DNA of 64,000 bases from positions 4,836,001-4,900,000 of the forward strand of contig NZ_CP108046.1 of assembly GCF_041435115.1 (NCBI RefSeq), read 5' to 3'. Below the pieces are notes generated by a model. It ran no database searches and was not told the origin of the DNA. It was given only the letters and a program-made list of their open reading frames with translations. The position numbers and the translations under genes were made by a program. This document shows, piece after piece, positions 41,702 through 61,481 of this stretch. The stretch's first letter is position 1. The number at the start of each line of letters is the position of its first letter. The DNA is from Streptomyces sp. NBC_00289 (GTDB lineage: Bacteria; Actinomycetota; Actinomycetes; Streptomycetales; Streptomycetaceae).

Positions 41702-41711
41702 GAAGTACCAG

Positions 41712-41749: not shown

Positions 41750-41767
41750 TCGTTCCATAGGGTCCCT

Positions 41768-41799: not shown

Positions 41800-41812
41800 G
41801 ACTCCCCGGATG

Positions 41813-43324: not shown

Positions 43325-43389
43325 GGTCACCTCTCGCAACAAGCGAGGGGTGGAGGCCGCGGCCTCCACCCCTCATGATCGGCTCTTCT

Positions 43390-43698: not shown

Positions 43699-43729
43699 CT
43701 TCGTGACTCCTCGTCTTGGCCTTCTGGGG

Positions 43730-45102: not shown

Positions 45103-45521
45103 GCGGCGGCCCTCCTTTCGGGCAAGGTCACGGACTCTCCCGTGCAGACGGACTTGTGAGCCGCGTAGTCGTCCGCGAGCGCGGCCACGTTCGGGGCTCC
45201 GGTGGCGGTGCCGGTCTGTCCGCACGCGCATGCGTAGGCGGCGTTCGGACTGTCGCCGGGGCGTGTGGACCAGCGGGCCCCGTCCCAGTGGTGGCGGTAG
45301 AGCGGTGGGGCGTAGATGCGGATGCCGGGCCGCTCCGGGGCCGGGTCGGGGGTGGTGTGGCGGGCCTGGTCGCTGCGGAACTTCTCAGGACGAACAGCAG
45401 TGGGGACGCCCTTGCGGGCGGCGCCTTTCGGCTCGCCTGCGGCCGACGTGTCCACAGTCTGTGGAGCGGCTGACGCCGGGCGGGGGCCGTTGAGGCTCTT
45501 AGTAGGTGGGGGGCTGGTCAT
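45099..45521 (-). CDS. Small AICE hypothetical protein
   Basis: 140 residues. Pro/Ala-rich N terminus, then YRHHWDGARWSTRPGD and YACACGQTGTAT...C, with three Cys that could bind metal. It overlaps its neighbours by ATGA on both sides, so it is part of the replication operon. Seen in several AICEs as an unknown gene. Function unknown. Confidence 0.65.
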   Translation of the reverse strand: MTSPPPTKSLNGPRPASAAPQTVDTSAAGEPKGAARKGVPTAVRPEKFRSDQARHTTPDPAPERPGIRIYAPPLYRHHWDGARWSTRPGDSPNAAYACACGQTGTATGAPNVAALADDYAAHKSVCTGESVTLPERRAAA

Positions 45522-47166: not shown

Positions 47167-47255
47167 GCTGGGAGACCTCCACAGGTCAGTTCGTGGCAGG
47201 TGGACAAGGGCGGCCCCAGTTCTTTGGCGAGATGCGGGGGCCGCCCTTGGCGTAG

Positions 47256-47567
47256 CTAGGCGCCCTTGTTGCGGGCGAGTTTGAGGGTGATGCCGCCGAC
47301 GCCGATGGGTCCGGCGGCGCCGGCGATGACGGTGAAGGTGTGGGCCGCGGCGTCGAGCAGGAAGCACAGGGCAGCGACCAGTCCCCAACCGCCGAGGACG
47401 GCAGCCCCGGCGATCGCGAACGGGACGACGATCCGACGCAGCGTGATGGCGTTCTCGTTGGTCGCCGGGGCCACGATGACGACCGGCTGACCGGTGGCCT
47501 GCGCGCGGTTCCAGACGTCGACGGGTATGTGCGGGGCGATGATCCCGGGCGGGTGATTGGGGTCCAT
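47256..47567 (-). CDS. Small membrane protein, SpdD-like
   Basis: 103 residues. Pro-rich start (MDPNHPPGIIAPHIP) and two hydrophobic helices (about 46-66 and 71-93). GAGGGAG precedes the ATG. Position between methyltransferase and TraB suggests the SpdD class of AICE spread proteins. The exact function of these in intramycelial spread is unknown. Confidence 0.6.
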   Translation of the reverse strand: MDPNHPPGIIAPHIPVDVWNRAQATGQPVVIVAPATNENAITLRRIVVPFAIAGAAVLGGWGLVAALCFLLDAAAHTFTVIAGAAGPIGVGGITLKLARNKGA

Positions 47568-47638
47568 GGCGGGCTCCCTCGGGGTGTGCCGCGGGCCCGC
47601 ACCGAAGGTGGTGCGGGCCCGTGTGGCGGGTGGGTTTG

Positions 47639-47797
47639 CTTGTCGCGTTGCTTGTCGTCTTCCTTGTCGTGCGGCTTGTCGCTTGTCTTGTCTTGTCGCT
47701 TGTCTTGTCGCTTGTCGCCTCCCAGGTCACAAGCCGTATCCGCGCCCCACAGGCCCGCTGCACGGCTTCTCTTCGGGTAGGGGCGACAAGCGACAAG
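47639..47797. repeat. CTTGTCG heptamer array, candidate clt/TRS
   Basis: Ten direct copies of CTTGTC(G) between 47,639 and 47,717 (the first four exactly 12 bases apart) and two inverted copies (CGACAAG) at 47,784-47,797, immediately beyond the stop of the traB gene. In Streptomyces plasmids the TraB-recognised clt locus also consists of short repeats at the 3' end of traB. Confidence 0.65.
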
Positions 47798-47798
47798 G

Positions 47799-49907
47799 TC
47801 AGCTCTCGGGAGGCGTTTGGGGGGCGTTGTCGCGGTGGACGTAGCGGGCTTTGGTGCCCTCCCCGACGCGGACGGCGGTGCCGTCCTTGGACCAGTCCTG
47901 GAGCCAGCGAACGACCGTCTGCCGGGTGGTGCCGTACTCATCGGTGAGCGCGCGGGCGATCGCGGAGGCTCCGGTGCCCTCGGTTCCGGAGGCGCGCAGC
48001 AGGGCGAGCGCGGCCCGCTGGGCGGGACTGTCCTGCTCGGGCTCCCGGTTGAGTGCGGACAGGTTCAGCCCGCCCGGCGCGGGAGGTTCGGCTGCCGTCG
48101 CGGTCGGTTCTGGTGCGGTGCCGAACTGGGCGTCGATCTCCGCCCGGAAGCGGCGCAGCATCTCGTCTTCCTGCGAAGCCTCCGGCCCCTCGGGGCGCAG
48201 GGCGGACAGGTTCAGCCCCGACCCGTCCGCGGACGACTCGCTGCCAGCGCTGGTGTCGGGGGTGAGGTCGCGCATCCATGCGGTGCGGTCGGCGTCCCAG
48301 CGGCGCGCGTAGGCGGGCCCGGCCGCTTTGGCGGACACGTCGTCCAACCGCGGATGCCGTTCGGAGGTCGCGGCGGTGATCTCCCGGATCTGGTTGGGGA
48401 GGATGCGCCACGCCTTGAACAGCGCGGCCGGTGACTCCGGGGTGCCCATGAACCCTGCGCCCTGGTAGGGGGCTTGGTCGACGCGCAGTCCGCGCCGGCC
48501 GGGGAACATCTTGCCCAGGTCCATGCCCTCGGTCTCTCCGCCGGTGAGGGCGACGCGCACCTTGCCCTCACGGCGGATCATCAAATTCCCGAGCACGCTG
48601 CCGGTGGCTCCGAGGGCGGTCAGGACGGTGCGCAGGCCCATGGCGCGCAGCATGCGGATGACTTCCAGGATCTTCTTGGCGAGTTCCTTCATCTGCCGGT
48701 CGGTGCTGACCAGGATCTCCGCGCCCTCATCGATGACCAGCATGATCTGCGGAATCTTCGCGCTGATCGGCAGCAGATCGGTGTTCGCCCTGGACAGCAC
48801 GTCCTGGTACGCCTTCTTGCGGTGCAGCCCGATCGCGAGGGCCGCATCGAGCATGGTGAGGGCTTCCTCGTAGGTGCCGGCGAGCCAGTCGATACCGGGC
48901 CGGACCGGCTTGCCATTTCCCTGCTCCAGCTCCCCGTTCAGGGCGGGCAGCACCCAGGGCAGGCCGGCTGATCCTGCGTTGAGGTCGATCACCCAGGTGA
49001 GGACGTCCTCGGCGCGGGCGAAGCCGGCGAGGATCGTGTGGACCATGTTCGTCTTGCCCGACCCGGTCGGGCCCACGACCAGGGCGCACTGCTCGCGCAG
49101 GTAGGCGGGCACCAACTCTCCGTTGGTGCGCAGCCCCCACGGAATCCCGGTGAGCACGGACAAGGGCCCGTAGTCGGTGGGGTAGGGGCAGTCGTCTGCA
49201 AGGACGTTGACGGTGGTCACGTCCAGGATGGTGCGGCCCTGATGGATGCCGGGCCCGGCGGTGGCGGTGCAGCCGTGCGGCAGCTTCGCATCCGCCGACA
49301 GGGCTACGGAGTGCTGGGCGATGCGGTCGTAGGTGATGCCGCCCTGCGGTTCGAGATCTAGGGAGTAGCCGGCCCCCGTCTCCCACTTCTCCACTCCGAG
49401 GACGCGCACGGTGATGTGGCAGATCCGCTGAATGCGTTCGATCCACTCCGCGGCGATCGCCCGCCGCTCCGCCGACAACTCCCGCGCGATCACCCGCTGC
49501 TCCGCGGCGATGGCTTCTTCTTCGCGGGCTTCTTCGTAGAGGGCGACGGAGCGGGCGGTGGCGCCGATGCCGACGCCGATGGTGGCCAGGGAGCCGAGGG
49601 CGGCCCAGGTGAGCGGCCCGTGGGTCATGGCCCACGTGGTCCAGCCGGCACCGACCAGCCAGGACGCGGCGCGGGTGGCGAGGGTGCGGCCGGCGTTGCG
49701 CACCCGCAGGCCGGCGACGGTGTGTCCCAGGGCGCCCGCGGCGCCGACGGCGAGTGCCCAGCCGGGGGGCATGGAGGTTGCGGCGCCGGTGGTGGCGACG
49801 GCGAAGGCTCCGGTGGTGGCGGACAGGGCGCCGGTCACGGGTCCGTGACCGGCACTCCAGTCCAGCACCGGGCCACTGCCCTGCTGTTTGGCGGTGGTGG
49901 TGGTCAT
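47799..49907 (-). CDS. TraB/FtsK-type conjugation translocase
   Basis: 702 residues. Membrane helices in the first 120 residues, then the FtsK/SpoIIIE motor: GPTGSGKTN (Walker A, about residue 280), VIDEGAEI (Walker B). The C terminus (about 640-702) is a winged helix, EYGTTRQTVVRWLQDW, the type that recognises clt repeats. Linker carries two GLNLSAL repeats. TraB alone moves double-stranded DNA between mycelia. It is coupled to the preceding gene (2-base spacing). The clt-like array follows it directly. Confidence 0.9.
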   Translation of the reverse strand: MTTTTAKQQGSGPVLDWSAGHGPVTGALSATTGAFAVATTGAATSMPPGWALAVGAAGALGHTVAGLRVRNAGRTLATRAASWLVGAGWTTWAMTHGPLTWAALGSLATIGVGIGATARSVALYEEAREEEAIAAEQRVIARELSAERRAIAAEWIERIQRICHITVRVLGVEKWETGAGYSLDLEPQGGITYDRIAQHSVALSADAKLPHGCTATAGPGIHQGRTILDVTTVNVLADDCPYPTDYGPLSVLTGIPWGLRTNGELVPAYLREQCALVVGPTGSGKTNMVHTILAGFARAEDVLTWVIDLNAGSAGLPWVLPALNGELEQGNGKPVRPGIDWLAGTYEEALTMLDAALAIGLHRKKAYQDVLSRANTDLLPISAKIPQIMLVIDEGAEILVSTDRQMKELAKKILEVIRMLRAMGLRTVLTALGATGSVLGNLMIRREGKVRVALTGGETEGMDLGKMFPGRRGLRVDQAPYQGAGFMGTPESPAALFKAWRILPNQIREITAATSERHPRLDDVSAKAAGPAYARRWDADRTAWMRDLTPDTSAGSESSADGSGLNLSALRPEGPEASQEDEMLRRFRAEIDAQFGTAPEPTATAAEPPAPGGLNLSALNREPEQDSPAQRAALALLRASGTEGTGASAIARALTDEYGTTRQTVVRWLQDWSKDGTAVRVGEGTKARYVHRDNAPQTPPES

Positions 49908-49908
49908 C

Positions 49909-51501
49909 TCAGACGTTCCAGCCCTTCTCTGCCTCGGGGCCGTTGCGGGGGTCTTCGTGTCGGGCGATGTCCTGCGCGTGGACCTGCCGGAACAGTGGGC
50001 CCATGTCCTCCGCGACGGCGACGGCGCTCATCAGGGCGCCGAAGATGTCGTTGAAGGCGTCCGCGACCTCCTTTTCCAGCGGAAACTCCGAGTCGGAGCG
50101 TTCCGCGAGGATCTTCATCACGTTCGCCACCGAGGTGAGGGCGGCGGGCAGTCCCTCGACCATGGCGAGGATCTCCATGGCGTTGTCGGGGTCGTAGGCG
50201 TTGGCGGCCTGCTCCATCTCGGAAGCGGCCTCTTCGAACTGGAAGCCGGACACGTTCTCTCCTTCACTCACAGAGGTGTTCGTGCTGGTCGGGACTCGTT
50301 CGGCGGGGCGCTTCACGTCACCGGCGATGCCGCTGCTGCCGTCGGTGGCGGCCTCGGCATCCGCTGCCGTCTCCTTGTCGTGCAGCTCCTCGCGGATCGC
50401 GTCGTCGCGGAGGGTGCGCTGCTCGCGGGCCGCCCCGCCGATCCGCCGGTACAGGCGCCGGCCGGGGTGGATGAGCCAGGGCAGGTTCAACTTGCGGCCG
50501 ATCGGGCTGGTGATCAGCCCGAGCAGACCCAGCGGCAGCGCGAGCAGCGCGGCGAGCAGGCGCCGGCCCTGGAAGCGGGCCGCCGACCTGCGCAACGCCT
50601 GCCGGGCCGCCTTGCGGGCGGGTGCCTTGCGGACCGCGCCGCGCTGCGCGTCGACCGTGACGCCGGCCTTCCGGTCCCGACGCGCACGGTTCTTGCTGAT
50701 CGCCGCATCCCGCCCCGCGCGGGCCTTGCGGGCGGCGCCTGCGAGCATCCGCCCGGCCACACCGGACTTGTGTCCGGCACGGGCGGTCAGGCCCGCACCG
50801 CTGCCGGCTGCTTTGGCGTTGCGGCGGGCATCCGCGACCGCGCGGCGAGCCGCGGTGGTCTGCGCCCGCTGACTACCGCGCGGGCCGGCCGCAGCCTGCT
50901 GGGCGGCGCGCAGTGCCTTGACCTGCCCGACCCGGCTCGCCGCTTTACCCGCGGCGCCGGCCGCGTGCTTGGACGCGCCGTGACCGGCCTTGCCGTGAGT
51001 CTTGGCGCCGGTGGCGGTGCTGGCGTGCCGGGCGGTCGGGCCTGCGTTACGGCGGTGCTGGCCCGGCAGCCGGCCGGAGCCCGCGCCGCCGCGGCCGGAG
51101 CGGGAACCGTGCGAGCGACCCCCGGCTCCGGTCCTGCTCGCGCCGCCGCGGTGCAGGCCCGCGCTCCGTGCCGCGGCACGTCCAGCGGTTTGGGCCGCGG
51201 CGCGTCGGGTGTCACGGCGTTTGCTGGGGGTGCGGGAGCGGGCAGCCGCGACGGTGCCGATGACCACGGCCCCGGTCGCGGCGATCATGGCGGCGATGGG
51301 TCCGCCCGCCAATGATGCGGCGGCGACCATGCCGACGGTGCTGTTCGTGCCGGTCAAGGCGAGCGGGACGATCGGCCAGCCGCCGGGGGTGTGGTCGACC
51401 TCCTTCACGTGCTGCGCTGTGCTGGCTGGCGGTTCCGGCGGGGGCGGTGGTGTGACCGCCGCAGCATCAAGGGCTACCGGCTCGGTCGTGAGGTCCGTCA
51501 T
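49909..51501 (-). CDS. Basic membrane-associated transfer protein (Spd-like)
   Basis: 530 residues from ATG 51,501 (AAGGAG upstream). Three parts: Pro-rich start with two hydrophobic helices (about 45-85), a long Arg/Ala/Gly-rich region (about 90-310) like a disordered nucleic-acid-binding segment, and, after another hydrophobic segment (about 320-340), an acidic C-terminal helical domain. It precedes TraB directly. The pattern fits an AICE transfer accessory protein but its family is uncertain. Confidence 0.6.
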   Translation of the reverse strand: MTDLTTEPVALDAAAVTPPPPPEPPASTAQHVKEVDHTPGGWPIVPLALTGTNSTVGMVAAASLAGGPIAAMIAATGAVVIGTVAAARSRTPSKRRDTRRAAAQTAGRAAARSAGLHRGGASRTGAGGRSHGSRSGRGGAGSGRLPGQHRRNAGPTARHASTATGAKTHGKAGHGASKHAAGAAGKAASRVGQVKALRAAQQAAAGPRGSQRAQTTAARRAVADARRNAKAAGSGAGLTARAGHKSGVAGRMLAGAARKARAGRDAAISKNRARRDRKAGVTVDAQRGAVRKAPARKAARQALRRSAARFQGRRLLAALLALPLGLLGLITSPIGRKLNLPWLIHPGRRLYRRIGGAAREQRTLRDDAIREELHDKETAADAEAATDGSSGIAGDVKRPAERVPTSTNTSVSEGENVSGFQFEEAASEMEQAANAYDPDNAMEILAMVEGLPAALTSVANVMKILAERSDSEFPLEKEVADAFNDIFGALMSAVAVAEDMGPLFRQVHAQDIARHEDPRNGPEAEKGWNV

Positions 51502-51591
51502 GCTGAGAGCACTCCTTTGGGGAGTCAAAGGGCCCGACCGTGTCGCTTGGCAAGGTGGACGGTCGGGCCCGGCAAGTGGTGTTCGGGCGGG

Positions 51592-51834
51592 TCAGAGCCG
51601 GTTGGGCTCCATCGAGAAGAAGCCCACCGAGGCACCGGACAGATTCGGGTCCTGAGCGGTGACGGACTGGTAGATCAGCCGGTACATGTCCCGTCGGCTG
51701 CTGCCGGGCGGCGGGGTGCAGGTGCCTTCCTGCGTCATCGAAAACCGGCCCGGCTTCTCCAGGGTCAGGACGAAGAAATGCGTGTCCTCGGCTGGCGGGG
51801 CGGCGGGTGCGGTGGGCTGCGGCGTGGTGCTCAC
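51592..51834 (-). CDS. Small AICE protein
   Basis: 80 residues from GTG 51,834 (GGGAGG upstream). Pro/Ala-rich start, then FFVLTLEKPGRFSMTQEGTC and YRLIYQ. Unrecognised; lies between a zinc protein and the basic transfer protein, in the same operon. Confidence 0.55.
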   Translation of the reverse strand: MSTTPQPTAPAAPPAEDTHFFVLTLEKPGRFSMTQEGTCTPPPGSSRRDMYRLIYQSVTAQDPNLSGASVGFFSMEPNRL

Positions 51835-51860
51835 GAGTCCTCCCGGACGTCGAAGAGGGG

Positions 51861-52244
51861 TCAGGCGGCGTGCTGTTCTTCGGCGGCGATGCACAGGCCG
51901 CAGATGCCGTAGGAGGTCGGGATGCAGTAGCCGACGTCCAGTTGGCAGCGGGGGCAGGTGCGGCGGGCCAGCATCGCCAGCGCGAGCGCGCCCCACTTGC
52001 GTGAGGTCATGGGACGCACGGGCTTGGCGAGGTCGAGGCGGTAGAGGTAGGCGACCTGGTGGCCACCCGAGCGTCGGCGGATGCGCATCACCTGCGCGGC
52101 GATCGGCTGCCCGCCCGGTCGCAGTCCGCGGGCGCGGAGTTGGCGGCGGGTGGCAAGCCCCTCCGGGGCCAGCCGGAAGGGGTAGGTAGGCACTCCGTAA
52201 CGGGCGCCGGCCGGGTCGAAGCAGTCGGCGAACGCGCTGGGCAT
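51861..52244 (-). CDS. RRQRL-motif zinc-binding protein
   Basis: 127 residues. It contains RRQLRARGLRPGGQ (the RRQxL-type motif of AICE proteins) and, at the end, CPRCQLDVGYCIP...CGLC, a four-Cys zinc site. Start ATG 52,244 overlaps the stop of the DUF2637 gene by one base. Conserved in many AICEs; probably a transfer or DNA-binding accessory. Function not known. Confidence 0.75.
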   Translation of the reverse strand: MPSAFADCFDPAGARYGVPTYPFRLAPEGLATRRQLRARGLRPGGQPIAAQVMRIRRRSGGHQVAYLYRLDLAKPVRPMTSRKWGALALAMLARRTCPRCQLDVGYCIPTSYGICGLCIAAEEQHAA

Positions 52245-53167
52245 CAGTGCCTGCCCCCGCTAGCGAGCGCCAGGTTGGAAGGCTGCTCACCGCCGTTCAC
52301 GGCCACCAGGTGCGGCCGCTCGCTGTCGTCAGCGTCGCGCACGGCGAGGATCTGCTTGCGTGCCCACGACTCGCTCATGCCGTACGCCTCACCCAGCGCA
52401 CGGGCGGACAGCGGGCGCTCCGCCTGTGCGGATTCGGCGTACGTACGGCGCGCGTCCTGCCGCATCCGCTCCAGTTCCGCTTCCTCGAACTGAGCCTGAC
52501 GGGCTGCCTCTTCCTCCGCATTCGGTTCCGGTGTGCGGACCGCGTGCGGGCCGTGCGGAACCTCCCCCCGCACGCTGCCCTCACTCTCCCCGACCAGGCC
52601 CGACGCAACCGGAGCCGCGGACGGCTGAGGATCGGCGGGCGCGTCGAGCGGGCCCGCCTCGGTGGACAGCGCGTCGGCGTGCGGCAGGTGTGCGGGCTCA
52701 TCCGCACGCTGCCCGCCCGCCAGCTCGTTCGCGGATGCTGGGCGGTGGTGGAGCACCTTGGCGACCAGGTCCGAGCCGAAGTAGATGGAGCCGACCGGGA
52801 GCGAGGTGGCCAGCAGTACGAGCACGTAGTTCGCGCTGTCCCAGTCGGCCAGCCGGCCCCAGTCGACCGATGCGCCATGCAGCTCGGGGACCAGGCCGTG
52901 CACGTAGTTGAGGACCAGCGAGGCGAGCGTATAGGTGGCCAGCACCCGCAGCGCGGTCCGCTTGTCCTTCTCGTTGGTCAGGACCAGCGTCGCGATGAGC
53001 GCCAGCGCCATCAGGCCGTCGACCACGAACGGGTACAGGGTGGCCGCGGTGTGGTCCGCGCCGATCGCGCAGGCCACGTCCCGCAGCGCGTTCCACGACA
53101 CCCGGAACGCCATCCCGACCACTACGACCAGGGCAACGACCAGCAGGATCTTGCCCTTGCGGTTCAT
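52244..53167 (-). CDS. DUF2637 membrane protein
   Basis: 307 residues. Four membrane helices in the first 150 residues (about 6-24, 43-64, 72-92, 114-135), the DUF2637 pattern of AICE and plasmid proteins, then a Pro/Glu-rich linker and a C-terminal HTH-like helix (SARALGEAYGMSESWARKQI). It probably couples the membrane to DNA during transfer (Spd class). ATGA overlap at its start. Function inferred from position. Confidence 0.75.
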   Translation of the reverse strand: MNRKGKILLVVALVVVVGMAFRVSWNALRDVACAIGADHTAATLYPFVVDGLMALALIATLVLTNEKDKRTALRVLATYTLASLVLNYVHGLVPELHGASVDWGRLADWDSANYVLVLLATSLPVGSIYFGSDLVAKVLHHRPASANELAGGQRADEPAHLPHADALSTEAGPLDAPADPQPSAAPVASGLVGESEGSVRGEVPHGPHAVRTPEPNAEEEAARQAQFEEAELERMRQDARRTYAESAQAERPLSARALGEAYGMSESWARKQILAVRDADDSERPHLVAVNGGEQPSNLALASGGRH

Positions 53168-53493
53168 GCCGTACCCCCGACCGGTAGCGGGGCGCTGATG
53201 TCGCCGTAGCCGATCAGCTCCAGCTCGGCACCCGCGTAGGTCGTGATCGTGCGCAGGACGCGGGTCCGGCCGTCGCTGTGCTCGCGGTAGGTGACCGCCT
53301 CCGGATCGATCCGCAGCGCCTCACGCCACGCCTCGAAGGTGGGCAGGCCGAAGTGGAGCGAGAGCTCCAGGCGGTCGGGATAGATGGGCGACACGCTCAC
53401 GCACGGAGCGGGAAGGTGTCCGAAGTCCGTGGCCAGCAGGCGCAGGGCCCGCAGCGGAGCCGTCAGATCGTTGAGCGTCACGTCGTCCCTCAT
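53164..53493 (-). CDS. Small AICE hypothetical protein
   Basis: 109 residues, beginning MRDDVTLNDLTAPLRALRLL. Alpha/beta composition without Cys clusters. It overlaps both neighbours by 4 bases. No family recognised. Confidence 0.6.
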   Translation of the reverse strand: MRDDVTLNDLTAPLRALRLLATDFGHLPAPCVSVSPIYPDRLELSLHFGLPTFEAWREALRIDPEAVTYREHSDGRTRVLRTITTYAGAELELIGYGDISAPLPVGGTA

Positions 53494-53801
53494 GCCGCCA
53501 CCGCCGTGACGTCGGCGTGGCTGCGCAGCGGCCGGCGCGTCGACCTCCGGCGCGTCCGGCAGCCGGCGGCCCGCACGTTCGTGAGCGGGCTGGTCCGCAG
53601 CAGGAACTCCGCGTATGCGGCGGCCCCGGGATCCACCTCGCGCAGCTCCGCGAGGACCTCGCGGGCCACGTCCAGCCGCGCCGCCCGATCACTATCGGAC
53701 TCCGCGGCCAGGCCGGTGAACAGCTCCTGATCGATACCGAACGCCAGCTCCGCGAACTCTGTCGCGGTAACAGCTTCATGACCAGCAACGATGCACTTCA
53801 T
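53490..53801 (-). CDS. Small AICE hypothetical protein, first gene of transfer operon
   Basis: 103 residues from ATG 53,801 with AAGGAG upstream. Acidic helical middle (ELFTGLAAESDSDRAARLDV) and an Arg-rich end. As the first gene of the minus-strand operon it should lie near the main promoter. Function unknown. Confidence 0.6.
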   Translation of the reverse strand: MKCIVAGHEAVTATEFAELAFGIDQELFTGLAAESDSDRAARLDVAREVLAELREVDPGAAAYAEFLLRTSPLTNVRAAGCRTRRRSTRRPLRSHADVTAVAA

Positions 53802-54470
53802 GGGTCGTGTCTCCTTAGTCGGTGGAACGGCCCGAACAGTGCCCCGGAGTTGCAGCTCCGGGGCGCGCGCCGTTGAAAGTGACCTCTCGTACTGCACGAG
53901 CGGCCACGGCTTCCCGACACCGGGGCGCCGCGGTGGACGCCGGTGTCGGGGACCGTGAGCACTGGTGCTCAGAAAGGCGGCTTTGCTGACCCGCCCTTGC
54001 TGTGGGCGGGCCGGCCCCGAGCCGGTGAATCGGGTGCGTCATCGTCACTGCTCTGACGCCAGCAGGGCGGCCTGCACGAATCGGTGCAGGGTGGCGAGCC
54101 GCCGACGACATCACCCGGTCGTCACGGGGGCGGTCTCACTCTTGCCGCCACGTGCGTTGGAGCCCCGCTGTACTTCCCCACACCCAAAGACCAGGTGGCG
54201 CTGCCAGGCGCGTAGGGAGAGACGGTGTCCATCACGGCGGTTTGCCCCCGGACCCTCGCCCTAGGCACCTACCGCGACCGCCGACTCGCGTCAGCCCCGC
54301 ACGATCACTTTTCAGTTTTCAAACGGACGCTTCCTCGGTGCACGCCTCTCGACATCAGTGTGCACTAGTGCGCCCTGATGCGCTTCACAATGACACTCAA
54401 CTGATGGCCAGTCAAGCCCACCGACTGATGCGCCCTAGTGCGGACTGGGTGACCTTGGTACGGTGGCTAT
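53802..54470. other. Regulatory region between divergent transcripts of the AICE
   Basis: 669 bases with no supported gene. Contains two hairpins (CCCCGGAG at 53,842-53,849 with CTCCGGGG at 53,856-53,863; CCCGCCC at 53,990-53,996 with GGGCGGG at 54,004-54,010), the palindrome GAGCACTGGTGCTC near 53,957-53,970, and the paired operators listed separately. It likely carries the promoters of the transfer operon and of the GntR gene. Confidence 0.6.
54367..54442 (+). promoter_or_regulatory. Paired operator-like repeats upstream of the GntR gene
   Basis: AGTGCGCCCTGATGCG (54,367-54,382) and GATGCGCCCTAGTGCG (54,427-54,442) both read RRTGCG-CCCT-RRTGCG. The half-sites are one helical turn (10 bases) apart and the two copies exactly 60 bases apart. 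The second lies just above the -10 box TACGGT (54,459-54,464). Confidence 0.6.
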
Positions 54471-54836
54471 GTGCCGATCAGTAGAGATGCCCCCAGTCCG
54501 CTGCACCTTCAGATCGCAGAAGACTTGCGACAGCGAATTCGAGCTGGCGAGTTTGAGCAAAATAGCTTTCCTTCACTCCGGTCTTTGGCTAAGCACTACG
54601 AGACCGCGCAGGTTACGGTGCACGATGCCGTGAAAGCGCTTCAGCAGGAAAAGTTGATCGTTTCCGTAAGCGGCAAAGGGACTTTTGTTCTCCCAATAGG
54701 GGAGAACACAACGGCCGGAGCAAACGAGCCCGAAGATCTGGCGGAGCAGATTGCTTCGTTGCGCACAGAGCTCGAAGACGTAAAAGGGCGCCTCAGCCGC
54801 CTTGAAAGTGGTGAGAGTCAGGACAAAAGTCCCTGA
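54471..54836 (+). CDS. GntR-type regulator of the AICE (KorSA-like)
   Basis: 121 residues from GTG 54,471. N-terminal winged helix: SPLHLQIAEDLRQRIRAGEF, SFPSLRSLAKHYETAQVTVH and KGTFV, then a coiled-coil C terminus (IASLRTELEDVKGRLSRLES) for dimerisation instead of a ligand domain. TACGGT ends 6 bases before the start, so it is likely leaderless. Position opposite the transfer operon and codon use like the accessory genes support its role as element repressor. Confidence 0.8.
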   Translation: MPISRDAPSPLHLQIAEDLRQRIRAGEFEQNSFPSLRSLAKHYETAQVTVHDAVKALQQEKLIVSVSGKGTFVLPIGENTTAGANEPEDLAEQIASLRTELEDVKGRLSRLESGESQDKSP

Positions 54837-54963
54837 ACTTCGACCGTTTGGGTTTCCGCTTCTTCATGAGAAGAGTCAATCGCATGTCTCGGTAAATCAA
54901 CATGAAGCGAGAGTGCAGTCAGAGTGCAGCCGGAGTGCAGACCACTGACCGCAGGGGGATTAG

Positions 54964-56538
54964 TTGGACGTCGTTGACACGTGGACCGGCCAAAACGCAA
55001 GCGCACTGAAAAAGGCGTTTCGCGAAACAAACGAAGGATTCGCTGGCCGTCTCGGGACATCTGTAAGGACAGTCGCCGCGTGGAGCGCTAACCCACAGTT
55101 GGCCCCAACGGCGGAGATTCAGCGCGCCTTAGACACACTGCTCTTTCATGCGGCGGCTGACGTGAAGGCGCGATTTGCGTTGCTAGTCGGGATTCGTCAA
55201 CAAGACTCAAGTGAACAAGTCACCACACGTCGCCAGACGCCTGCGCAACTGCGTTTGGCAACGGACCCTCACATCGCGGCCGCCTTATCCTGGCTCGAAT
55301 CGAGATTTGCGTGGGCACCCAAAAGCGCACGAGAGCGGGTCACGGAAGAACTCGCCGCGTTAGACCCGCGCGCCATGGAAGCGCAGGCTCAGCGACTCGC
55401 ACAGGTGACTAGGGAACAGGCTGCTGCGGCGGCACGGCGCTATTACCAGGCGGGGTTCAGCCAATGGCGTCCATACAAGGCGCAGGTAGCCGGTCACGTG
55501 CTTGCGACAACCGTCCTGACGCAGGATTCATGGTTGGACCTGGCACAGCCAGTGGGCGACGGACAGGACAGCTTTCAGTTTCGGCCCGACATGCGGCAAG
55601 GAATGAGACTTAGCCGCAGCGTGGCGGAAGAAGCAGCGCGAAGCTTGGCCGAATCTATTGAAAAGGGCAGTCAGATCGTCAACTCTGAGATTTATACCCT
55701 AACTTCTTTAGATATTCGGCCTGGGATTATCTCTGGCGGTGTAGGCGTCATCGATTTTGTAGAATTCGCACTCACGCTCAATCTCTTGGAGAGTGAGCTT
55801 ATGCGGTCGATCGCCGAAGAATCAGACCGACGACCAACGATGCCAATACGAGACGAACTGCTACCTGATGTGACAGCAGTCTTGGACTTCTCCGGACGCG
55901 TTTGCGCAGGCGGAGCGTTAGCCCTGACCGCGATCGCGCGGCCACGTGGACGCGGCCACGCCCCCGACTACCTACTCCTGATTCAAGAGCGGTCCGGCAG
56001 CGTACTCAACGCAAACCGACGCCTGGCAGTAATTCCCAAAGCGTTCCACGGACCGATGGCTGACTACGGTGAGGATGCTCGCTTCTCAGCAACAGTCGAG
56101 CGCGAGATGGAGGAGGAGCTTTTCGGACGGACCGATGTCGACTCGACTGTCGGCGAGCAGCTCCATGCCGATCCGATGCACCCCAGTCTCCTGTCCGACC
56201 CAATGCATTGGCTCATGGACCGGCAAGGCAGCGATGCGTGGCGGATGGAGTCCACAGCCGTGGGGATCAACCTCGTGAGCGGCAACTACGAGTTCGCGAG
56301 CCTGATCGTTATCGATGACGAAGAGTGGTGGGTCAAATACGGGGGGCAAGTCAGAGCGAACTGGGAATCGAGCGGGCTGCACCGATACTCCAGTCTAGAT
56401 ACTGCGCGGCTAGAGTCGCTTGCGCTCGACCCGCGCTGGAGTAACGAAGGTTTCTTCGCATTTACCCAAGGGTGCCGACGGCTTGCCAGGATTGGCGGGC
56501 AGCGTGTTCGGATGCCTTCCATCGAACTGGAGTCGTAG
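54964..56538 (+). CDS. HTH/Nudix-like regulatory protein with five TTA codons
   Basis: 524 residues from TTG 54,964 (AGGGGGA five bases before). N-terminal XRE-like HTH (residues about 12-60, GFAGRLGTSVRTVAAWSANP), helical middle, and a Nudix-like part where YLLLIQERSG...EREMEEELFG matches the REUXEE core without a strict consensus. The pSAM2 immunity factor Pif is also a Nudix protein, so an immunity or regulatory role is possible. TTA codons are rare in Streptomyces; five of them make expression depend on bldA tRNA. Low GC3 codon use differs from the transfer genes. Followed 3 bases later by the cupin gene. Confidence 0.6.
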   Translation: MDVVDTWTGQNASALKKAFRETNEGFAGRLGTSVRTVAAWSANPQLAPTAEIQRALDTLLFHAAADVKARFALLVGIRQQDSSEQVTTRRQTPAQLRLATDPHIAAALSWLESRFAWAPKSARERVTEELAALDPRAMEAQAQRLAQVTREQAAAAARRYYQAGFSQWRPYKAQVAGHVLATTVLTQDSWLDLAQPVGDGQDSFQFRPDMRQGMRLSRSVAEEAARSLAESIEKGSQIVNSEIYTLTSLDIRPGIISGGVGVIDFVEFALTLNLLESELMRSIAEESDRRPTMPIRDELLPDVTAVLDFSGRVCAGGALALTAIARPRGRGHAPDYLLLIQERSGSVLNANRRLAVIPKAFHGPMADYGEDARFSATVEREMEEELFGRTDVDSTVGEQLHADPMHPSLLSDPMHWLMDRQGSDAWRMESTAVGINLVSGNYEFASLIVIDDEEWWVKYGGQVRANWESSGLHRYSSLDTARLESLALDPRWSNEGFFAFTQGCRRLARIGGQRVRMPSIELES

Positions 56539-56541
56539 GTC

Positions 56542-56895
56542 ATGGCTGACAACTGGTATACGGGCAATGCGAACGTCGATGCCGACCAGCACCGCGGTTG
56601 GCTTCTGGGGCATTTCATCGATCCCGCCGAAAGCGCGGTGCGCCAGACGGGGGCGCTGGAAGTGAAGTGGGGTATCCACCCGGCCGGCCAGCAACGGCCG
56701 GAGTGGGTAGCCGATGATCAGCGCACCACCCTGCTCCTCCTCGTCAGTGGCAAGTTCCGGCTAGACCTCGGCCCAGGTAGCGTCACGCTGGAGGAGCAAG
56801 GCGACTATGTGGTGTGGGGGCCAGGGATCGATCACTCGTGGCAGGCAGAAGAAGACTCTGTAGTTGTGACCGTGCGCTGGCCGTCCATCGCCTGA
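56542..56895 (+). CDS. Small cupin-fold protein
   Basis: 117 residues. Beta-rich with cupin strands (WGIHPAGQQRPEW..., TTLLLLVSGKFRLDLG, GDYVVWGPGIDHSWQAEED). HPAG and GIDHSW provide His residues in positions expected for cupin metal binding. Starts 3 bases after the HTH/Nudix-like gene and is surely cotranscribed. In some genomes such genes are mislabelled as signal peptidase. Ligand unknown. Confidence 0.65.
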   Translation: MADNWYTGNANVDADQHRGWLLGHFIDPAESAVRQTGALEVKWGIHPAGQQRPEWVADDQRTTLLLLVSGKFRLDLGPGSVTLEEQGDYVVWGPGIDHSWQAEEDSVVVTVRWPSIA

Positions 56896-56980
56896 CACGT
56901 ACTCCATACAAGAGCGTGTTGTGGGCAACCCCTCACGAGTCCGACTCTGTGTCCGCCGCCAGTGCCTCACCGGGCACGAT

Positions 56981-57018
56981 GTCGAAGGGCCCCGCTGTTC
57001 GCAGCGGGGCCCTTCGAC
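56981..57018. terminator. Very strong hairpin with TTCG tetraloop
   Basis: Perfect 17-bp stem GTCGAAGGGCCCCGCTG (56,981-56,997) with its complement (57,002-57,018) and loop TTCG. It ends the HTH/Nudix-cupin transcript. Confidence 0.85.
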
Positions 57019-57039
57019 GGTTGCAGTCTCATCAACAGT

Positions 57040-57309
57040 CTCAACGCGACCCTGCGGAACCCTCCGGGCCGCCATCGCCGTGGACGACCACCCCATAATC
57101 TGCATCACCACCCGTTCCGGGACTCCAAGGATGAGCAAGATCGTGGCGGCGGTATGCCGGGCACTGTGCGGCCGGCCGTCCCGGACTTTGACGTGAAGAC
57201 GAAACCGGTCTCGCGCCGCTCGCGCGGCCCTCAGACGCTCCCGGTCCTTCTCCTGCGGTGCAGTTCCAACAGCCGGGCCAATGCGGGAGATGCGAACGGC
57301 TGTCCTCAC
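57040..57309 (-). pseudogene. Integrase C-terminal remnant
   Basis: Open frame starting near 57,309 that reads a tyrosine-recombinase C-terminal region: HSARHTAAT (HxxRH), LLILGVPERVVMQIMGW and then diverges. The Tyr nucleophile region is absent or frameshifted. It cannot code for an active enzyme. It shows that another integrating element once lay here. Confidence 0.65.
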
Positions 57310-57624
57310 GTGTCATCAACCTGCCCTCCGGAACTCATCTTGGAGCCACACCCCATTTCAGCATGACCAAAAAGGGGCAACCACGCCCCGCCGTACCGCG
57401 GTTCCGTCCTGCTCACATCGGGGCCGCACTCAGCCCGGCGAGTGCACGTGCCGTGTCTCATTCAGGTGATATGTAAAGGTTTGTTCCTCACGTTTTCGGG
57501 TGATGGTTGGCGATTTTGTTGCAACCCCTTGCGGCGAGTGGTCGAAGCTGGATGATTGTAGGGAACCAGTTGTCGCTCCTGTGTTAGAAAACTCCCAGTA
57601 GGCAAGTCGTGAAGCGAGACGTCT

Positions 57625-58449
57625 TTGACTCAGCCAATTGCCACTCCGCGTTTCAGTGCCGACGAGGTTGCTGACCGTCTAGGCGCTCCAGTTACCTTCC
57701 TAGGGTCCGGCGCGTTTGGTGATACATGGCAGGTTGGCAGCGAAGCCGTAAAAATTATCTGCACTGACGGATATCCTCGGACTCGACTAGAGCGGGAAGT
57801 TGAGGGGCTCTCGCGCGTAAACTCTCCATACGTGGTTAACTTTCGAGGGCTGGAAGAACTCCGACTCGGTGGAGAGCAACGGCCGGCCTTGCGTTTCGAG
57901 TACATCGATGGCGGCGATGTCGAGCGTCGACTAAACGCAGGAAGTCTTGTGCCAAAGGAATCAATACTTGGTTTCCTGAGAGGGTTGCTTCTCGGTGTTC
58001 AGGCCCTCCACAAGGCAGCAACGATTCACCGGGATATCAAGCCAGCCAATATAGCTCTACGCGGCGGTCAGTGGGATCAACCTGTATTGCTGGACCTGGG
58101 GCTGGCCAAGCAGATGGATGCAAGCACAATCACGGTATATCCCGGCCACATCGGCACTATGCCGTATATGGCTCCCGAGCAGCTTGAAGGGCGACGGGCT
58201 CGCAAGGCTGCCGATTTGTGGGCCGTAGGAGTTTCTGTGCGGCAAATGATCACGGGGCGGCACCCTTTTTATTTGCCAGCCGAAAAATACTCCATCAGTG
58301 ACGCCTACGCAAAACTTGAGGGTGGCCCGGAGACTCTTCCTGCCGGCTGCCCGAATACGGTTAAGGAAGTGCTGGAAAGACTGACGTCTGTCGTGGAACA
58401 TGAACGCGGAAGCAGCGCCAGTAATCTCATGCGGCTCAAGGCGGAATGA
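57625..58449 (+). CDS. Serine/threonine protein kinase
   Basis: 274 residues from TTG 57,625. Gly-rich loop LGSGAFGDTWQ, VAIK-type Lys43 (EAVKII), catalytic HRDIKPAN (Asp137), DLG (Asp157, DLG instead of DFG), and MAPEQ as APE. It has no membrane helix or extracellular sensor, so it is cytosolic, unlike most PASTA kinases. The kinase domain stands almost alone, with a short helical tail. The next gene begins 9 bases after it, so the pair is one operon. Codon use is low-GC like the neighbouring accessory genes. Confidence 0.85.
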   Translation: MTQPIATPRFSADEVADRLGAPVTFLGSGAFGDTWQVGSEAVKIICTDGYPRTRLEREVEGLSRVNSPYVVNFRGLEELRLGGEQRPALRFEYIDGGDVERRLNAGSLVPKESILGFLRGLLLGVQALHKAATIHRDIKPANIALRGGQWDQPVLLDLGLAKQMDASTITVYPGHIGTMPYMAPEQLEGRRARKAADLWAVGVSVRQMITGRHPFYLPAEKYSISDAYAKLEGGPETLPAGCPNTVKEVLERLTSVVEHERGSSASNLMRLKAE

Positions 58450-58458
58450 GGGGGAAGC

Positions 58459-59880
58459 ATGGCCCATGAAGAGCCAGACTCGATGCCTGGGGACGACTTG
58501 GAATGGCTGGAGGACGAAGACAGCCTGACCGAGGTAGTGGACGAGGAGCAACTGCAAGGCCAGGCAGCTAATGCATGGCTAGCCGCCGAAGAAGCGTATG
58601 TTCCGCTCGATGACGGAGACGGGTACTTGGCTGTTGGTGGAGCTGACGCGGGAAGCGTGGTGTCGGCATTGCCAGCAGGGTCTACCGTAAGTGAGATCTC
58701 TACCGCTCCCGCGGTTGCTAGCCGAGATGACGCTTTGGCCGGTGATCGTCCGGTCTACCTTGTGCATCACGGAGCTCGTCACGCGAATTTCCTTCCCGTA
58801 GTGATGGGCGACCTGCATCACAAGAAAGGTCGTTCGCTAACACTGGGGGCCGTCGCTAACCTGCCATCCGCTAAAGCAGCCAAGATTTCTTCCTTCTTTC
58901 AGCAGGCGTCTGTGGCGGCACTCCGCATTGCTGACCCACAGTGTTATCGCCTCGATGACAAGATTCTTCGTCTGCCTCCCAGCCCAATCGGGAAGCGCGC
59001 GCTAGAGTATTCTCCATATCTCGCATCGCCTGAAGAGCCCGATTGGTTGCGCCAGGTACTGAATGCACAGCGAGCCGTTGGTGCCAACCTTTTGTTGACG
59101 CCTGGCCGTGCGCTCAATCCGGATGATCCGCAGAATTCGCTCGATGCAGCCTTCCAACAAGCGGACGAAGCGCTGGCGCTGACAGAACGAGGGGAGCGGG
59201 TGGCCCTCAACCTCACCGTACCGTCTCGGTGGCTTGCCAGCGGAGCTCTTCGTAATCGACTGCTGGACGAGATTCTGGACCAAGACCAGTTCGACGTTCT
59301 GCATATTCGAATCCAGTGGGGTGCATCGAAAGCATTTGCTCCCACGGTCGATGCTGATCTACTCATGGGAATTAGGCGACTCGCCAACCTCTGCGTAGAT
59401 GAAGGGCGATCGCTGCTACTTCCGCAGACGGGACTAACCGGCTGGTTCGCTCTTGCTCACGGCGCCACAGGCTTTGGGTTGGGTGTTAGCGGTTCCGAAC
59501 AGGCATTTACGGAGCATGCTTTTCGGAGAAGTCAGCCCGGCCGGCAGCAGGCTCAGAGGTACTTTGAGAAGCAAATGCTGCACACAGTGGACCGTAGCGC
59601 CCACGACGTCTTCCAGCATGCGGCTGGCTACATCAACTGTGACTGCGTCTACTGTCCTGCTCTTTTCGACAGCCAGCCATGGTCTCACCCCCTTGCCGCA
59701 CTTCACCATATTTTTTCGATGGGTGCTTTGACGGCAAGGGTTCATGAGGACTCTGAGAGGGGCGGGCGCCATGCGGCGGTCCGTCGTATTGTGGCTGTCG
59801 CTAGGAGGTGGTCGAGTGGGCTACCTCTCGGTTCGGACGACGTCCCACGACACTTGCCCGTCTGGGGTCAGGCCCTGTAG
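58459..59880 (+). CDS. Unknown protein with TGT-like zinc motif
   Basis: 473 residues. N-terminal acidic tail (to about 60), then a predicted alpha/beta barrel-like body. At residues 394-399 is CDCVYC, followed by His410, HH416-417 and His429 in ALHHIF...ARVHED; this resembles the CxCxxC...H zinc site of tRNA-guanine transglycosylases and their DNA-modifying relative DpdA. No catalytic Asp pair was confirmed. It may exchange a base in nucleic acid, or use the fold otherwise. Cotranscribed with the kinase (9-base gap) and overlaps the convergent gene by 80 bases. Confidence 0.45.
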   Translation: MAHEEPDSMPGDDLEWLEDEDSLTEVVDEEQLQGQAANAWLAAEEAYVPLDDGDGYLAVGGADAGSVVSALPAGSTVSEISTAPAVASRDDALAGDRPVYLVHHGARHANFLPVVMGDLHHKKGRSLTLGAVANLPSAKAAKISSFFQQASVAALRIADPQCYRLDDKILRLPPSPIGKRALEYSPYLASPEEPDWLRQVLNAQRAVGANLLLTPGRALNPDDPQNSLDAAFQQADEALALTERGERVALNLTVPSRWLASGALRNRLLDEILDQDQFDVLHIRIQWGASKAFAPTVDADLLMGIRRLANLCVDEGRSLLLPQTGLTGWFALAHGATGFGLGVSGSEQAFTEHAFRRSQPGRQQAQRYFEKQMLHTVDRSAHDVFQHAAGYINCDCVYCPALFDSQPWSHPLAALHHIFSMGALTARVHEDSERGGRHAAVRRIVAVARRWSSGLPLGSDDVPRHLPVWGQAL

Positions 59881-60622
59881 TAGTTGTTAGATCTTCGCCG
59901 AACACAAGCCCGATTGAGCCGCTCACCTTACCCAAGGAATAGAGGTGGGCGGCTCTTTCTGCTAGCAGTTCGCGGTATACGTTAATTACGCGGCTACGTT
60001 TCTTAACGGGAGGATCTACAGTGCGCTCTACACCGTCAGTGGGGTGTACAGTTGCCAAACCAATTTCTGCCTGCGTGAACCACGCGTGATGGGCCGATGC
60101 TGGCGCTGAATTGGTGGAGTCCAACACGAGCCAAGATTCATCCGCCGATGCCCTATGGCGCAATGTCTGACTATATCCGCTACGCCAGTCGCGAATCTTA
60201 ACTTCCATTGTGCAGATATATGTAGCCAAGCTTTCAAATTTCGAGATGGCTCGCCAGCGGCCACGGGACTCCTTGTTGACGTGACCGTTTTCTGCCAGTC
60301 TCGGCAAAACAGCCGAGGAGATATAGCCAGCACTCAAGGGCACGTGTGCCGCGAGGGTGGCTGCGGATACTGTTTCCTCGTTAAATGAATTTAGAGCGCG
60401 CAGGGTACACATGTCGGCGAAGTCAACTACGAAGTGCTGAGAATTTTCCGACCTTCGGTTTAGTGCCAACCTGTCAAACTCGATACAAACGATGTCTGGG
60501 ATGCCAGCGGTAGTCTGCACTTCGAAAAGTGTCTCAATTTGACGCCCCGGCAGTAAATTGGCCGTTTGTTCAACAATTGGTGCGAGCATGTCGGCTTCGC
60601 GTGCAAATTTATTTCTCCGCAT
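59801..60622 (-). CDS. wHTH-containing PD-(D/E)xK nuclease-like protein
   Basis: 273 residues from ATG 60,622 (GGAG 7 bases upstream; ATG 60,628 is also open). TLFEVQTTAGIPDIVCIEFD (Asp43) and, about 100 residues later, EVKIRDWRSGYSQTL with Glu140 and Lys142 fit a PD...ExK nuclease core with Gln152 beyond it. Residues about 76-125 between them look like a winged helix (LAAHVPLSAGYISSAVLPRL). The nuclease assignment is inferred from this split pattern. It overlaps the previous gene by 80 bases tail to tail. Confidence 0.4.
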   Translation of the reverse strand: MRRNKFAREADMLAPIVEQTANLLPGRQIETLFEVQTTAGIPDIVCIEFDRLALNRRSENSQHFVVDFADMCTLRALNSFNEETVSAATLAAHVPLSAGYISSAVLPRLAENGHVNKESRGRWRAISKFESLATYICTMEVKIRDWRSGYSQTLRHRASADESWLVLDSTNSAPASAHHAWFTQAEIGLATVHPTDGVERTVDPPVKKRSRVINVYRELLAERAAHLYSLGKVSGSIGLVFGEDLTTTTGPDPRRASVVGRRPNREVAHSTTS

Positions 60623-61310
60623 GCTCATGCTCCTTCAAGTTGGGACACTCGGTACCAGTATAGACTTATTGGGCTTCCGCTGCTATATGCGCGCAGGGCG
60701 ATTGTATTTGTATCCGAATCGTTTCCTTGGCGGTAGGGAATTTCAAACTTTCAGCATGGTCGAAGCCGGCGACCACATTGTGGCGCGCGGTGGGCTGTGC
60801 CGTGCTCGCCGCGGACGGTTGTTCACCCCCGCTTCCCCTGTACGTAGGAAGTCAACCGTCGCCTCAGTTCTGCCGAGGCGCAGCCGCATGGTGTGGTTGT
60901 GGTGCTCCTGCCCCTTGCCGTACCGGCCCTGTGGGCCAGAGAGACAGTTCCGGGCCGCCGGAGAGAAGTCAGAGGAGGTCACAGGGGCTATGGATGCGGG
61001 TTCAGCGACGCTCTTGAGAATCGTCGTGCTCTCCCAGCGCGGTATACCTGCTCTCCTCCATGAAGGCCGGCGCATTGAGCGGGCACGCGTCGACTCTGCG
61101 GCGCTGCCTCCTTGTCTCCGTTCCGGCTGGCCGCGCCGGCGGCGCGCTACATGCAGTGGGGCAGAAGCTGGGGAACCGCTCTGTAGCTGGGACGGTCGAT
61201 CAGGTCGGACACCAGGCCTGCGAGATGCATCCCGAACTGACCAAGCGCACCCTCAAATTGACGAGGCACTTCAATCGAGCGTCGCAACCGTGTATCGAGG
61301 GCCAAGCCCC
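60623..61310. other. Gene-free region of the AICE before attR
   Basis: 688 bases. Several short frames on both strands were inspected; none has ribosome sites, family features or good codon use, and the region looks degenerate. It includes an AT-rich stretch (60,650-60,760) that may be a promoter of the leftward gene. Confidence 0.5.
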
Positions 61311-61342
61311 GGGGAGTGAACGGGGAGTGGATCAAGAAAATC
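61311..61342. repeat. Right arm-type repeat inside attR
   Basis: 32 bases beginning GGGGAGTGAACGGGGAGTGG, 30 of 32 identical to 41,768-41,799. Together with that copy, a candidate pair of integrase/Xis arm sites, direct orientation, 93 bases from the core. Confidence 0.65.
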
Positions 61343-61435
61343 AGGCCGCGCGTCACCTACGCTGACCAACGCACACCGAGGCCCTGACCTGCGCATACAT
61401 CCAACAACCCTGGTCAGTGATCTTCCCGCACATTA

Positions 61436-61481
61436 TTCGGGACGAAGAGGTCGTGGGTTCAAATCCCGCCACCCCGACAGT
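61436..61481 (+). repeat. AICE attR core (46-bp direct repeat)
   Basis: Identical to 41,656-41,701; reproduces the 3' end of tRNA-Pro. Beyond it ordinary chromosome resumes. Confidence 0.95.

What the first reader, a model, noticed from the sequence alone, without database searches (positions are those of the whole stretch)
57625..60622. Possible undescribed accessory system: kinase, TGT-like zinc protein, split nuclease-like protein
Seen: a soluble Ser/Thr kinase and a 473-residue protein with a CxCxxC...H site are 9 bases apart, and a convergent wHTH/PD-ExK-like gene overlaps the second by 80 bases; the three share low-GC codon use unlike the transfer genes. Known: AICEs and prophages carry anti-phage cargo in such end positions; kinases, base-modifying TGT relatives (DpdA) and nucleases are components of defence and DNA-modification systems. 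Inferred: the three act together, for example base exchange or tagging, kinase control and cleavage.
Basis: partly seen in the sequence, partly recalled or inferred. Interest (0 to 1): 0.82.

Follow-up and report, generated by a model that had tools for sequence, protein, structure and literature searches.

The report
Mobile kinase, TGT-fold, nuclease gene trio
A mobile element in a Streptomyces chromosome carries three genes (a protein kinase, a protein folded like a tRNA-base-swapping enzyme, and a likely DNA-cutting enzyme) that travel together in distantly related bacteria, in some cases beside or inside known defence systems, and that look like a not yet described bacterial defence module.

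Summary
Kinase (57625-58449 +), 473-aa protein (58459-59880 +) and convergent 275-aa gene (59801-60628 -) are intact low-GC genes at the end of an AICE bounded by a 46-bp tRNA-Pro repeat. Of 25 loci compared, 24 keep kinase > barrel < nuclease, down to 17-27% identity; the other is decayed. The proteins co-diverge (r 0.92-0.98). A nuclease profile over 396 Actinomycetota genomes hit 9; 7 have kinase and barrel next door, three of them co-directional, one of these inside a BREX operon. Another trio adjoins Wadjet JetABC.

The parts
57625..58449 (+). Hanks-type Ser/Thr protein kinase, 274 aa; no other Pfam domain
   Evidence: Pfam Pkinase 9.3e-32; Lys43, HRD (135-137), Asn142, DxG (157-159) invariant in 24 of 24 loci
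58459..59880 (+). 473-aa TGT-fold (beta/alpha) barrel protein with zinc-type CxCxxC, nucleophile position not acidic
58933..58935 (+). Asp159 (ADP motif), likely equivalent of TGT Asp102
   Evidence: D in 50 of 50 of A1, 22 of 24 loci; equivalence inferred from strand order and offset, not from superposed coordinates
59638..59655 (+). CxCxxC (Cys394, 396, 399), presumed zinc site
   Evidence: 50 of 50 in A1; 22 of 24 loci, absent in L046 and L047
59801..60628 (-). 275-aa PD-(D/E)xK nuclease-like protein, convergent with the barrel gene
60227..60433 (-). Winged helix (about residues 66-134) inserted between catalytic motif II (Asp45) and ExK (142-144)
60197..60205 (-). Glu142-x-Lys144 catalytic motif of the nuclease
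   Evidence: invariant in A2 (window plus 56 of the 100 hits) and in A4 (13 diverse sequences)
59801..59880 (.). 80-nt tail-to-tail overlap of barrel and nuclease genes
   Evidence: overlap of 4-101 nt in the 24 convergent loci
41656..61481 (.). Integrated AICE that carries the trio as its last cargo
   Evidence: 46-bp exact repeats at both ends, first copy in tRNA-Pro; integrase etc.
41656..41701 (+). Attachment repeat in tRNA-Pro (CGG)
61436..61481 (+). Second attachment repeat, about 0.8 kb beyond the nuclease start
41813..43369 (-). Tyrosine integrase of the AICE
   Evidence: Phage_integrase 2.6e-8, Phage_int_SAM_3 1.2e-9

Best explanation
A mobile three-gene anti-invader module. SHOWN (by sequence and prediction): a kinase and a PD-(D/E)xK nuclease with complete motifs and a TGT-fold protein without an acid at the nucleophile position (zinc motif and one active-site Asp mostly kept) are inherited together. 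INFERRED: the TGT-fold protein works as a reader rather than a base exchanger; it binds a nucleic-acid feature of the invader or of the stressed cell (a tRNA anticodon-like loop or altered bases in DNA). The winged helix docks the nuclease on DNA, and the phosphorylation state releases its cutting activity. In the convergent form the nuclease must have its own promoter, and the overlap with the barrel gene may keep it low until needed; the co-directional versions show that this layout is optional.
For: Unit: 24 of 25 loci keep the trio; co-divergence r 0.92-0.98; 7 of 9 nuclease hits in 396 genomes have kinase and barrel adjacent. Activity: kinase and nuclease catalytic residues complete. Reader, not exchanger: no acid at the nucleophile position; PF01702 absent in 12 of 18 hosts. 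Mobility: AICE, three plasmids, TrwC relaxase next door in L013. Defence context: inside a BREX operon in G020, between PglXI (1441 bits) and a BrxH helicase (1582 bits), with BrxF, BrxC, PglZ, BrxA; JetA, JetB, JetC follow the trio in L014; a IIG-like MTase about 2 kb upstream in L068; DUF4209/PDC-S39 near the trio in L005. Precedent for kinase plus REase: PglW and some DndF proteins fuse a NERD REase, pseudo-kinase and kinase (passages of PMC12839542 and PMC10853773). No barrel in phage records or viral contigs, no nuclease in phage records.
Against: No phage or plasmid exclusion data exist. Neighbourhoods were only partly typed and no background rate was measured: ten neighbours from six loci gave a defence match in L014 and L005; L007, L008 and L015 gave none and the L013 match is a relaxase. 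In one search the two L064 neighbours gave one short RT-type match and one blank, and one of two in L068 was blank. A 75-residue piece of a related nuclease does lie in one viral contig (L054). Phosphorylation target, trigger and nuclease activity are inferred. Residue equivalences with TGT rest on strand order and offsets; profile-profile comparison with six canonical TGTs gave no significant match. L046 and L047 lack the CxCxxC. Two of the 9 nuclease hits lack kinase and barrel (G305 at a contig end, G239). Whole-genome profile searches were confined to Actinomycetota; the wider scans named only actinobacteria but are limited in reach.
Confidence: 0.5

Rival explanations
1. Modification-restriction pair: the TGT-fold protein (helped or controlled by the kinase) marks resident DNA or tRNA by a base exchange with unusual catalytic residues, and the convergent nuclease cuts what is unmarked, as in R-M systems with convergent R and M genes (recalled).
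For: TGT fold; Asp159 kept in 22 of 24 loci; convergent layout in 24 loci; TGT homologues are central to Dpd and proposed as modifiers in BRC systems (PMC12839542 passages).
Against: No Asp/Glu at the nucleophile position in 50 of 50 or at 214-216; no PF01702 in the host and no clear QueC in 18 hosts; in the BREX-embedded copy a PglXI methyltransferase is already present.
Confidence: 0.15
2. Addiction (toxin-antitoxin-like) module: the nuclease is a toxin held in check by the kinase and/or the TGT-fold protein, and the trio serves to keep plasmids and AICEs in the cell.
For: Found on an AICE and on three plasmids; nuclease on its own transcript in the convergent form; tandem duplicate in G570.
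Against: Also inside a BREX operon and beside JetABC; no small antitoxin co-operonic with the nuclease was seen in the common form; L016 keeps an open barrel frame after the kinase has decayed, though its nuclease is off the contig.
Confidence: 0.13
3. Element-versus-element control: the trio regulates transfer or excludes related AICEs/plasmids, the winged-helix protein acting mainly as a DNA-binding regulator.
For: Terminal cargo of an AICE whose integrase relatives (E<=1e-100) occur in 42 of 179 Streptomyces genomes while the barrel is in 5 of 392; the Kineococcus homologue is annotated as a BadM/Rrf2 regulator.
Against: Complete PD-(D/E)xK residues in the loci compared, not needed for a repressor; BREX and JetABC neighbours.
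Confidence: 0.1
4. Base-removing restriction: the barrel keeps only the acid/base Asp and hydrolyses a glycosidic bond in foreign nucleic acid; the nuclease cuts at the resulting abasic site.
For: Asp159 kept, nucleophile position not acidic; restriction glycosylases are known (PMC10273834, start of abstract in the listing only).
Against: Asp159 is replaced in L048 and L049; no glycosylase family match; purely structural reasoning.
Confidence: 0.07

Closest known systems
tRNA-guanine transglycosylase (TGT, PF01702)
   Different: 11% identity; no Pfam match at E<=1 for the window protein or at E<=10 for four divergent members; no acid at the nucleophile and Asp156 positions; host has no PF01702 gene
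QTRT2, the non-catalytic subunit of eukaryotic TGT
   Same: TGT fold and zinc site kept with catalytic residues replaced; possible binding scaffold (PMC6165067 passages)
   Different: QTRT2 has Cys for the Asp102-type residue and Glu for the nucleophile; here the Asp102-type residue is kept and the nucleophile position is mostly Gly (rarely Ser, Thr, Ala, Cys); no PF01702 partner in 12 of 18 hosts
Dpd 7-deazaguanine DNA modification-restriction (DpdA)
   Same: TGT-type protein in a putative conflict system
   Different: barrel and nuclease have no PADLOC match, no clear preQ0 pathway, three genes with a kinase
BRC systems of PMC12839542 (HerA/FtsK, PglZ, DUF6079, TGT, GNAT)
   Same: TGT homologue joined with BREX parts; one trio here lies in a BREX operon
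   Different: the described set has HerA, STAND NTPase, DUF4007, GNAT; in the passages seen no kinase-TGT-nuclease trio is mentioned; its supplements were not seen
PglW / kinase-bearing DndF
   Same: Ser/Thr kinase tied to a restriction-type nuclease (passages)
   Different: there fused in one large protein with NERD REase and pseudo-kinase; here separate genes with a TGT-fold partner
PD-T4-6 and MADS Mad6 kinases (PADLOC)
   Same: kinase domain matches at 2.2e-37 and 4.1e-38
   Different: general kinase similarity: MADS6 score 96 bits against a cut-off of 460

Membership tests
TGT (PF01702) | match to the family profile | tested here: not met
   no hit at E<=1 for the window protein, none at E<=10 for four divergent members; PF01702 search of the own genome finds nothing
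TGT (PF01702) | TGT-type barrel fold | tested here: met
   predicted model
TGT (PF01702) | zinc site CxCxxC plus His | tested here: inconclusive
   CxCxxC and His416 invariant in A1, but by eye His416 lies upstream of the TGT zinc His (TGT ligands recalled); CxCxxC absent in 2 of 24 loci
TGT (PF01702) | two catalytic Asp (Z. mobilis 102 and 280) | tested here: not met
   Asp159 fits 102 (22 of 24); no Asp/Glu at 335-343 in 50 of 50. Equivalence from strand order and offset, not from coordinates
Dpd system | DpdA, DpdB, DpdC genes | tested here: not met
   PADLOC scan of six proteins at 54471-60628: barrel, nuclease, 524-aa protein and cupin no match, GntR two weak non-Dpd matches; for the kinase only 25 of 35 matches were shown, none Dpd
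Dpd system | preQ0 supply in the host | tested here: inconclusive
   QueC profile: 10 of 18 genomes match at E<=1e-3, 9 over the 22-bit cut-off, best single stretch 27.1 bits; 12 of 13 stretches cover only about residues 1-71 of 210, in 440-878-aa frames, one covers 1-177; salvage not tested
PD-(D/E)xK nuclease | E...D...ExK(...Q) motif | tested here: met
PD-(D/E)xK nuclease | restriction-nuclease core fold | tested here: met
PD-(D/E)xK nuclease | DNA cleavage | not testable with these tools
   needs enzyme assay
Hanks-type Ser/Thr kinase | catalytic Lys, HRD, Asn, DxG | tested here: met
   24 of 24 (L046 and L047 have Ser for the Lys of HRDxKPxN); Pfam 9.3e-32
BREX | BrxC, PglZ, PglX in the locus | tested here: not met
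   not among the window neighbours scanned (six proteins by PADLOC; fourteen by Pfam); of the copies typed only G020 has them
MADS | Mad6 score above curated cut-off | tested here: not met
   96 of 460 bits
AICE | tRNA att repeats, integrase, Xis, Prim-Pol replication, FtsK-like transfer gene | tested here: met
   FtsK match weak (19.3 bits, cut-off 24)
Anti-phage defence system | protection against phage | not testable with these tools
   only neighbourhood evidence

The most novel reading that the evidence does not exclude
An undescribed class of defence module in which a TGT barrel has been turned from a base-exchanging enzyme into a nucleic-acid reader (a prokaryotic counterpart in kind of QTRT2), and a dedicated protein kinase converts that reading into activation of a winged-helix PD-(D/E)xK nuclease. 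It spreads alone on AICEs and plasmids and can be plugged into BREX as an extra sensing-cutting layer.
Probability: 0.35. Interest if true: 0.85.

Novelty: new variant of a known kind. Interest (0 to 1): 0.72.

Why it matters
A dispersed, uncatalogued three-gene unit with two apparently active enzymes and a repurposed TGT fold would add a new way of coupling recognition to nuclease action in bacteria, and would show that the TGT fold serves outside base exchange. The module is compact (3 kb), lives in tractable Streptomyces, and makes direct tests easy: phage plating, point mutants, phosphoproteomics.

Tried and rejected
Profile-profile comparison of the barrel family with six canonical actinobacterial TGTs gave no significant alignment, perhaps because the canonical set is shallow; a profile of A1 against PDB sequences gave none. 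The fold therefore rests on structure prediction. Foldseek against viral models gave no match below 1e-3; families not listed there are not excluded.

The upstream low-GC genes (GntR 54471-54836, 524 aa 54964-56538, cupin-like 56542-56895) were considered as parts: none was found at E 1e-4 in L002-L016 (15 loci); GntR-type stretches of 47-50 bits lie in L051 and L052. They were left out. Promoter/terminator scanning gave nothing above shuffles.

Results that do not fit or were dropped. Nuclease profile, 396 genomes: G305 (hit near a contig end, no kinase or barrel match in the 6.5 kb fetched) and G239 (151-aa nuclease-like gene beside a 465-aa and a 398-aa protein, no kinase match). Genus search: G560 at 6e-4 over the winged helix only, in a 920-aa frame, treated as unrelated. 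Class-of-G347 search with A3: 4 of 199, of which G856 and G798 are marginal (4e-4, 6e-4) with stops and were not counted. L030, L053 and L032 were not counted because contig length or coordinates show them to repeat L002 and L010; L031 and L033 are the same places as L052 and L051. L054, a viral contig with a 75-residue nuclease piece, was not counted. L016 is the one exception among the 25: barrel with a kinase remnant (best piece E 1e-13, with stops) beside tRNA-Arg, nuclease off the contig. L015 was left out of the co-divergence test because its nuclease is cut.

Papers. Searches for the trio or for TGT-type conflict systems; listings only, except passages of PMC12839542, PMC10853773, PMC6884629 and PMC6165067. 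PMC10164549 is not held.
Full report
WHAT IS THERE. One search confirms three intact genes: 57625-58449 + (274 aa), 58459-59880 + (473 aa) and 59801-60628 - (275 aa). Kinase and 473-aa gene are 9 nt apart; the convergent gene overlaps by 80 nt. Their GC (0.53-0.59) and GC3 (0.54-0.58) are well below the eight genes measured at 41813-53167 (0.64-0.74; 0.70-0.90). They are the last genes of an integrated element: a 46-bp exact repeat lies at the 3' end of tRNA-Pro (41656-41701) and at 61436-61481, and the element has a tyrosine integrase, an HTH_17 protein, DUF3631, Prim-Pol, DUF2637 and a weak FtsK-like gene, i.e. an AICE.

THE TRIO IS A UNIT. A scan of one genome per species with the 473-aa family gave 15 loci, two plasmids followed, and further loci came from whole-genome profile searches and from the L039 barrel. 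Of 25 loci examined, 24 have kinase > barrel < nuclease with the two tails overlapping by 4-101 nt (in L015 the nuclease is cut by the contig end). The exception, L016, has the barrel, a decayed kinase piece with stops, a tRNA-Arg upstream, and a contig end where the nuclease would be. Most of these loci were found through the barrel, so the count shows what accompanies a barrel. Identities to the window fall to 27% (kinase), 17% (barrel) and 19% (nuclease), yet pairwise distances of the three proteins correlate at 0.98, 0.95 and 0.92 over 23 trios, the best of 5000 permutations reaching 0.55. Among 392 Streptomyces genomes the barrel is in 5 and the nuclease in 7: the same 5, plus G570, which carries a divergent trio twice, plus one winged-helix hit that I treat as unrelated. 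Among 396 Actinomycetota genomes a barrel profile found 3; a broad nuclease profile found 9, of which 7 have kinase and barrel next door. Four of these 7 are convergent (own, G347, G025, G177); three (G020, G144, G237) are co-directional in the order nuclease, kinase, barrel. The G237 barrel matches the family profile only at 7.5e-4, and the G020 barrel is linked by 2.5e-9 to the G237 barrel and 3.4e-8 to an enlarged profile, in a small database. So the three functions belong together, while the convergent layout is common but not obligatory.

CONTEXT. The trio sits on an AICE (window), a conjugative Arthrobacter plasmid, a Kineococcus plasmid listed as linear, a mobilizable Dietzia plasmid, and next to a TrwC relaxase in L013. 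Neither barrel nor nuclease was found in 50,697 phage records; in viral contigs no barrel and one 75-residue nuclease piece. Relatives of the AICE integrase are in 42 of 179 Streptomyces genomes, own included, against 5 of 392 for the barrel, so the trio is sparse cargo. Defence links: in L014 JetA, JetB and JetC follow the trio; in G020 it lies inside a BREX operon between PglXI and a BrxH helicase, with BrxF, BrxC, PglZ and BrxA. BrxF and PglXI point to type III (compare the passages of PMC12839542), although the best helicase model is described as BrxHI. In L068 a IIG-like MTase is about 2 kb upstream; L005 has a PDC-S39/DUF4209 neighbour. Against this, ten neighbours from six loci gave defence matches in two loci only, and no background rate was measured.

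DOES IT MODIFY BASES? The own genome has no PF01702 gene although 14 of 14 control genomes ring; 12 of 18 module-bearing genomes lack it, 6 have it. QueC hits in the same 18 are marginal: 10 match at E<=1e-3, 9 over the 22-bit cut-off, best 27.1 bits, 12 of 13 stretches covering only about the first 70 of 210 residues; I read them as other PP-loop enzymes (12 of 14 controls ring). Together with the missing acid at the nucleophile position this speaks against queuosine- or deazaguanine-type exchange, without excluding salvage or another chemistry.

MECHANISM. I favour a kinase-gated nuclease with a TGT-fold reader (confidence 0.5); steps shown and inferred are separated in the explanation section. 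The kinase-REase link has precedent in PglW and DndF, and a catalytically dead TGT partner has precedent in QTRT2. That the trio is a functional unit I hold at about 0.95; that it acts against invaders at about 0.6.

NOVELTY. No paper with this trio was found in the searches listed (one library). BRC systems (PMC12839542, passages only, supplements not seen) are the nearest published link of a TGT homologue with BREX parts, but with other partners. The folds are known; the combination and the altered barrel are not in the libraries used: hence a new variant of a known kind, with a bolder reading kept open.

Noticed in passing
L065/L070/L071 (G020:C73): BREX operon (BrxF, BrxC, PglXI, BrxH, PglZ, BrxA) with the nuclease-kinase-barrel trio co-directional between PglXI and BrxH.
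   Followed up: partly
L047 2240-10419 (G570:C15): Two tandem copies, with identical match scores, of a divergent trio about 5.4 kb apart, barrel without CxCxxC; an assembly artefact is not excluded.
   Followed up: no
L069 5757-8816 (G239:C3): A 151-aa nuclease-like gene, then a 465-aa protein with a DPQTH motif and a 398-aa protein that by eye looks SIR2-like (no Pfam match): perhaps a version with the kinase replaced.
   Followed up: no
window 41813-43369: The AICE integrase has a LacI-type HTH match (6.4e-15) at residues 318-360, inside the recombinase; relatives in 42 of 179 Streptomyces genomes.
   Followed up: no
window 54471-56895: Low-GC GntR, a 524-aa protein without a significant family match and a cupin-like protein between the transfer genes and the trio; a second cargo block.
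   Followed up: partly
L010 10001-11415: In Streptomyces fulvorobeus the barrel gene is split over two frames near its N-terminus.
   Followed up: no
L016 8188-9998: Nocardia locus with an open barrel frame, decayed kinase and a tRNA-Arg upstream.
   Followed up: yes
own genome (G000): An 11-Mb Streptomyces genome without any PF01702 TGT match.
   Followed up: partly
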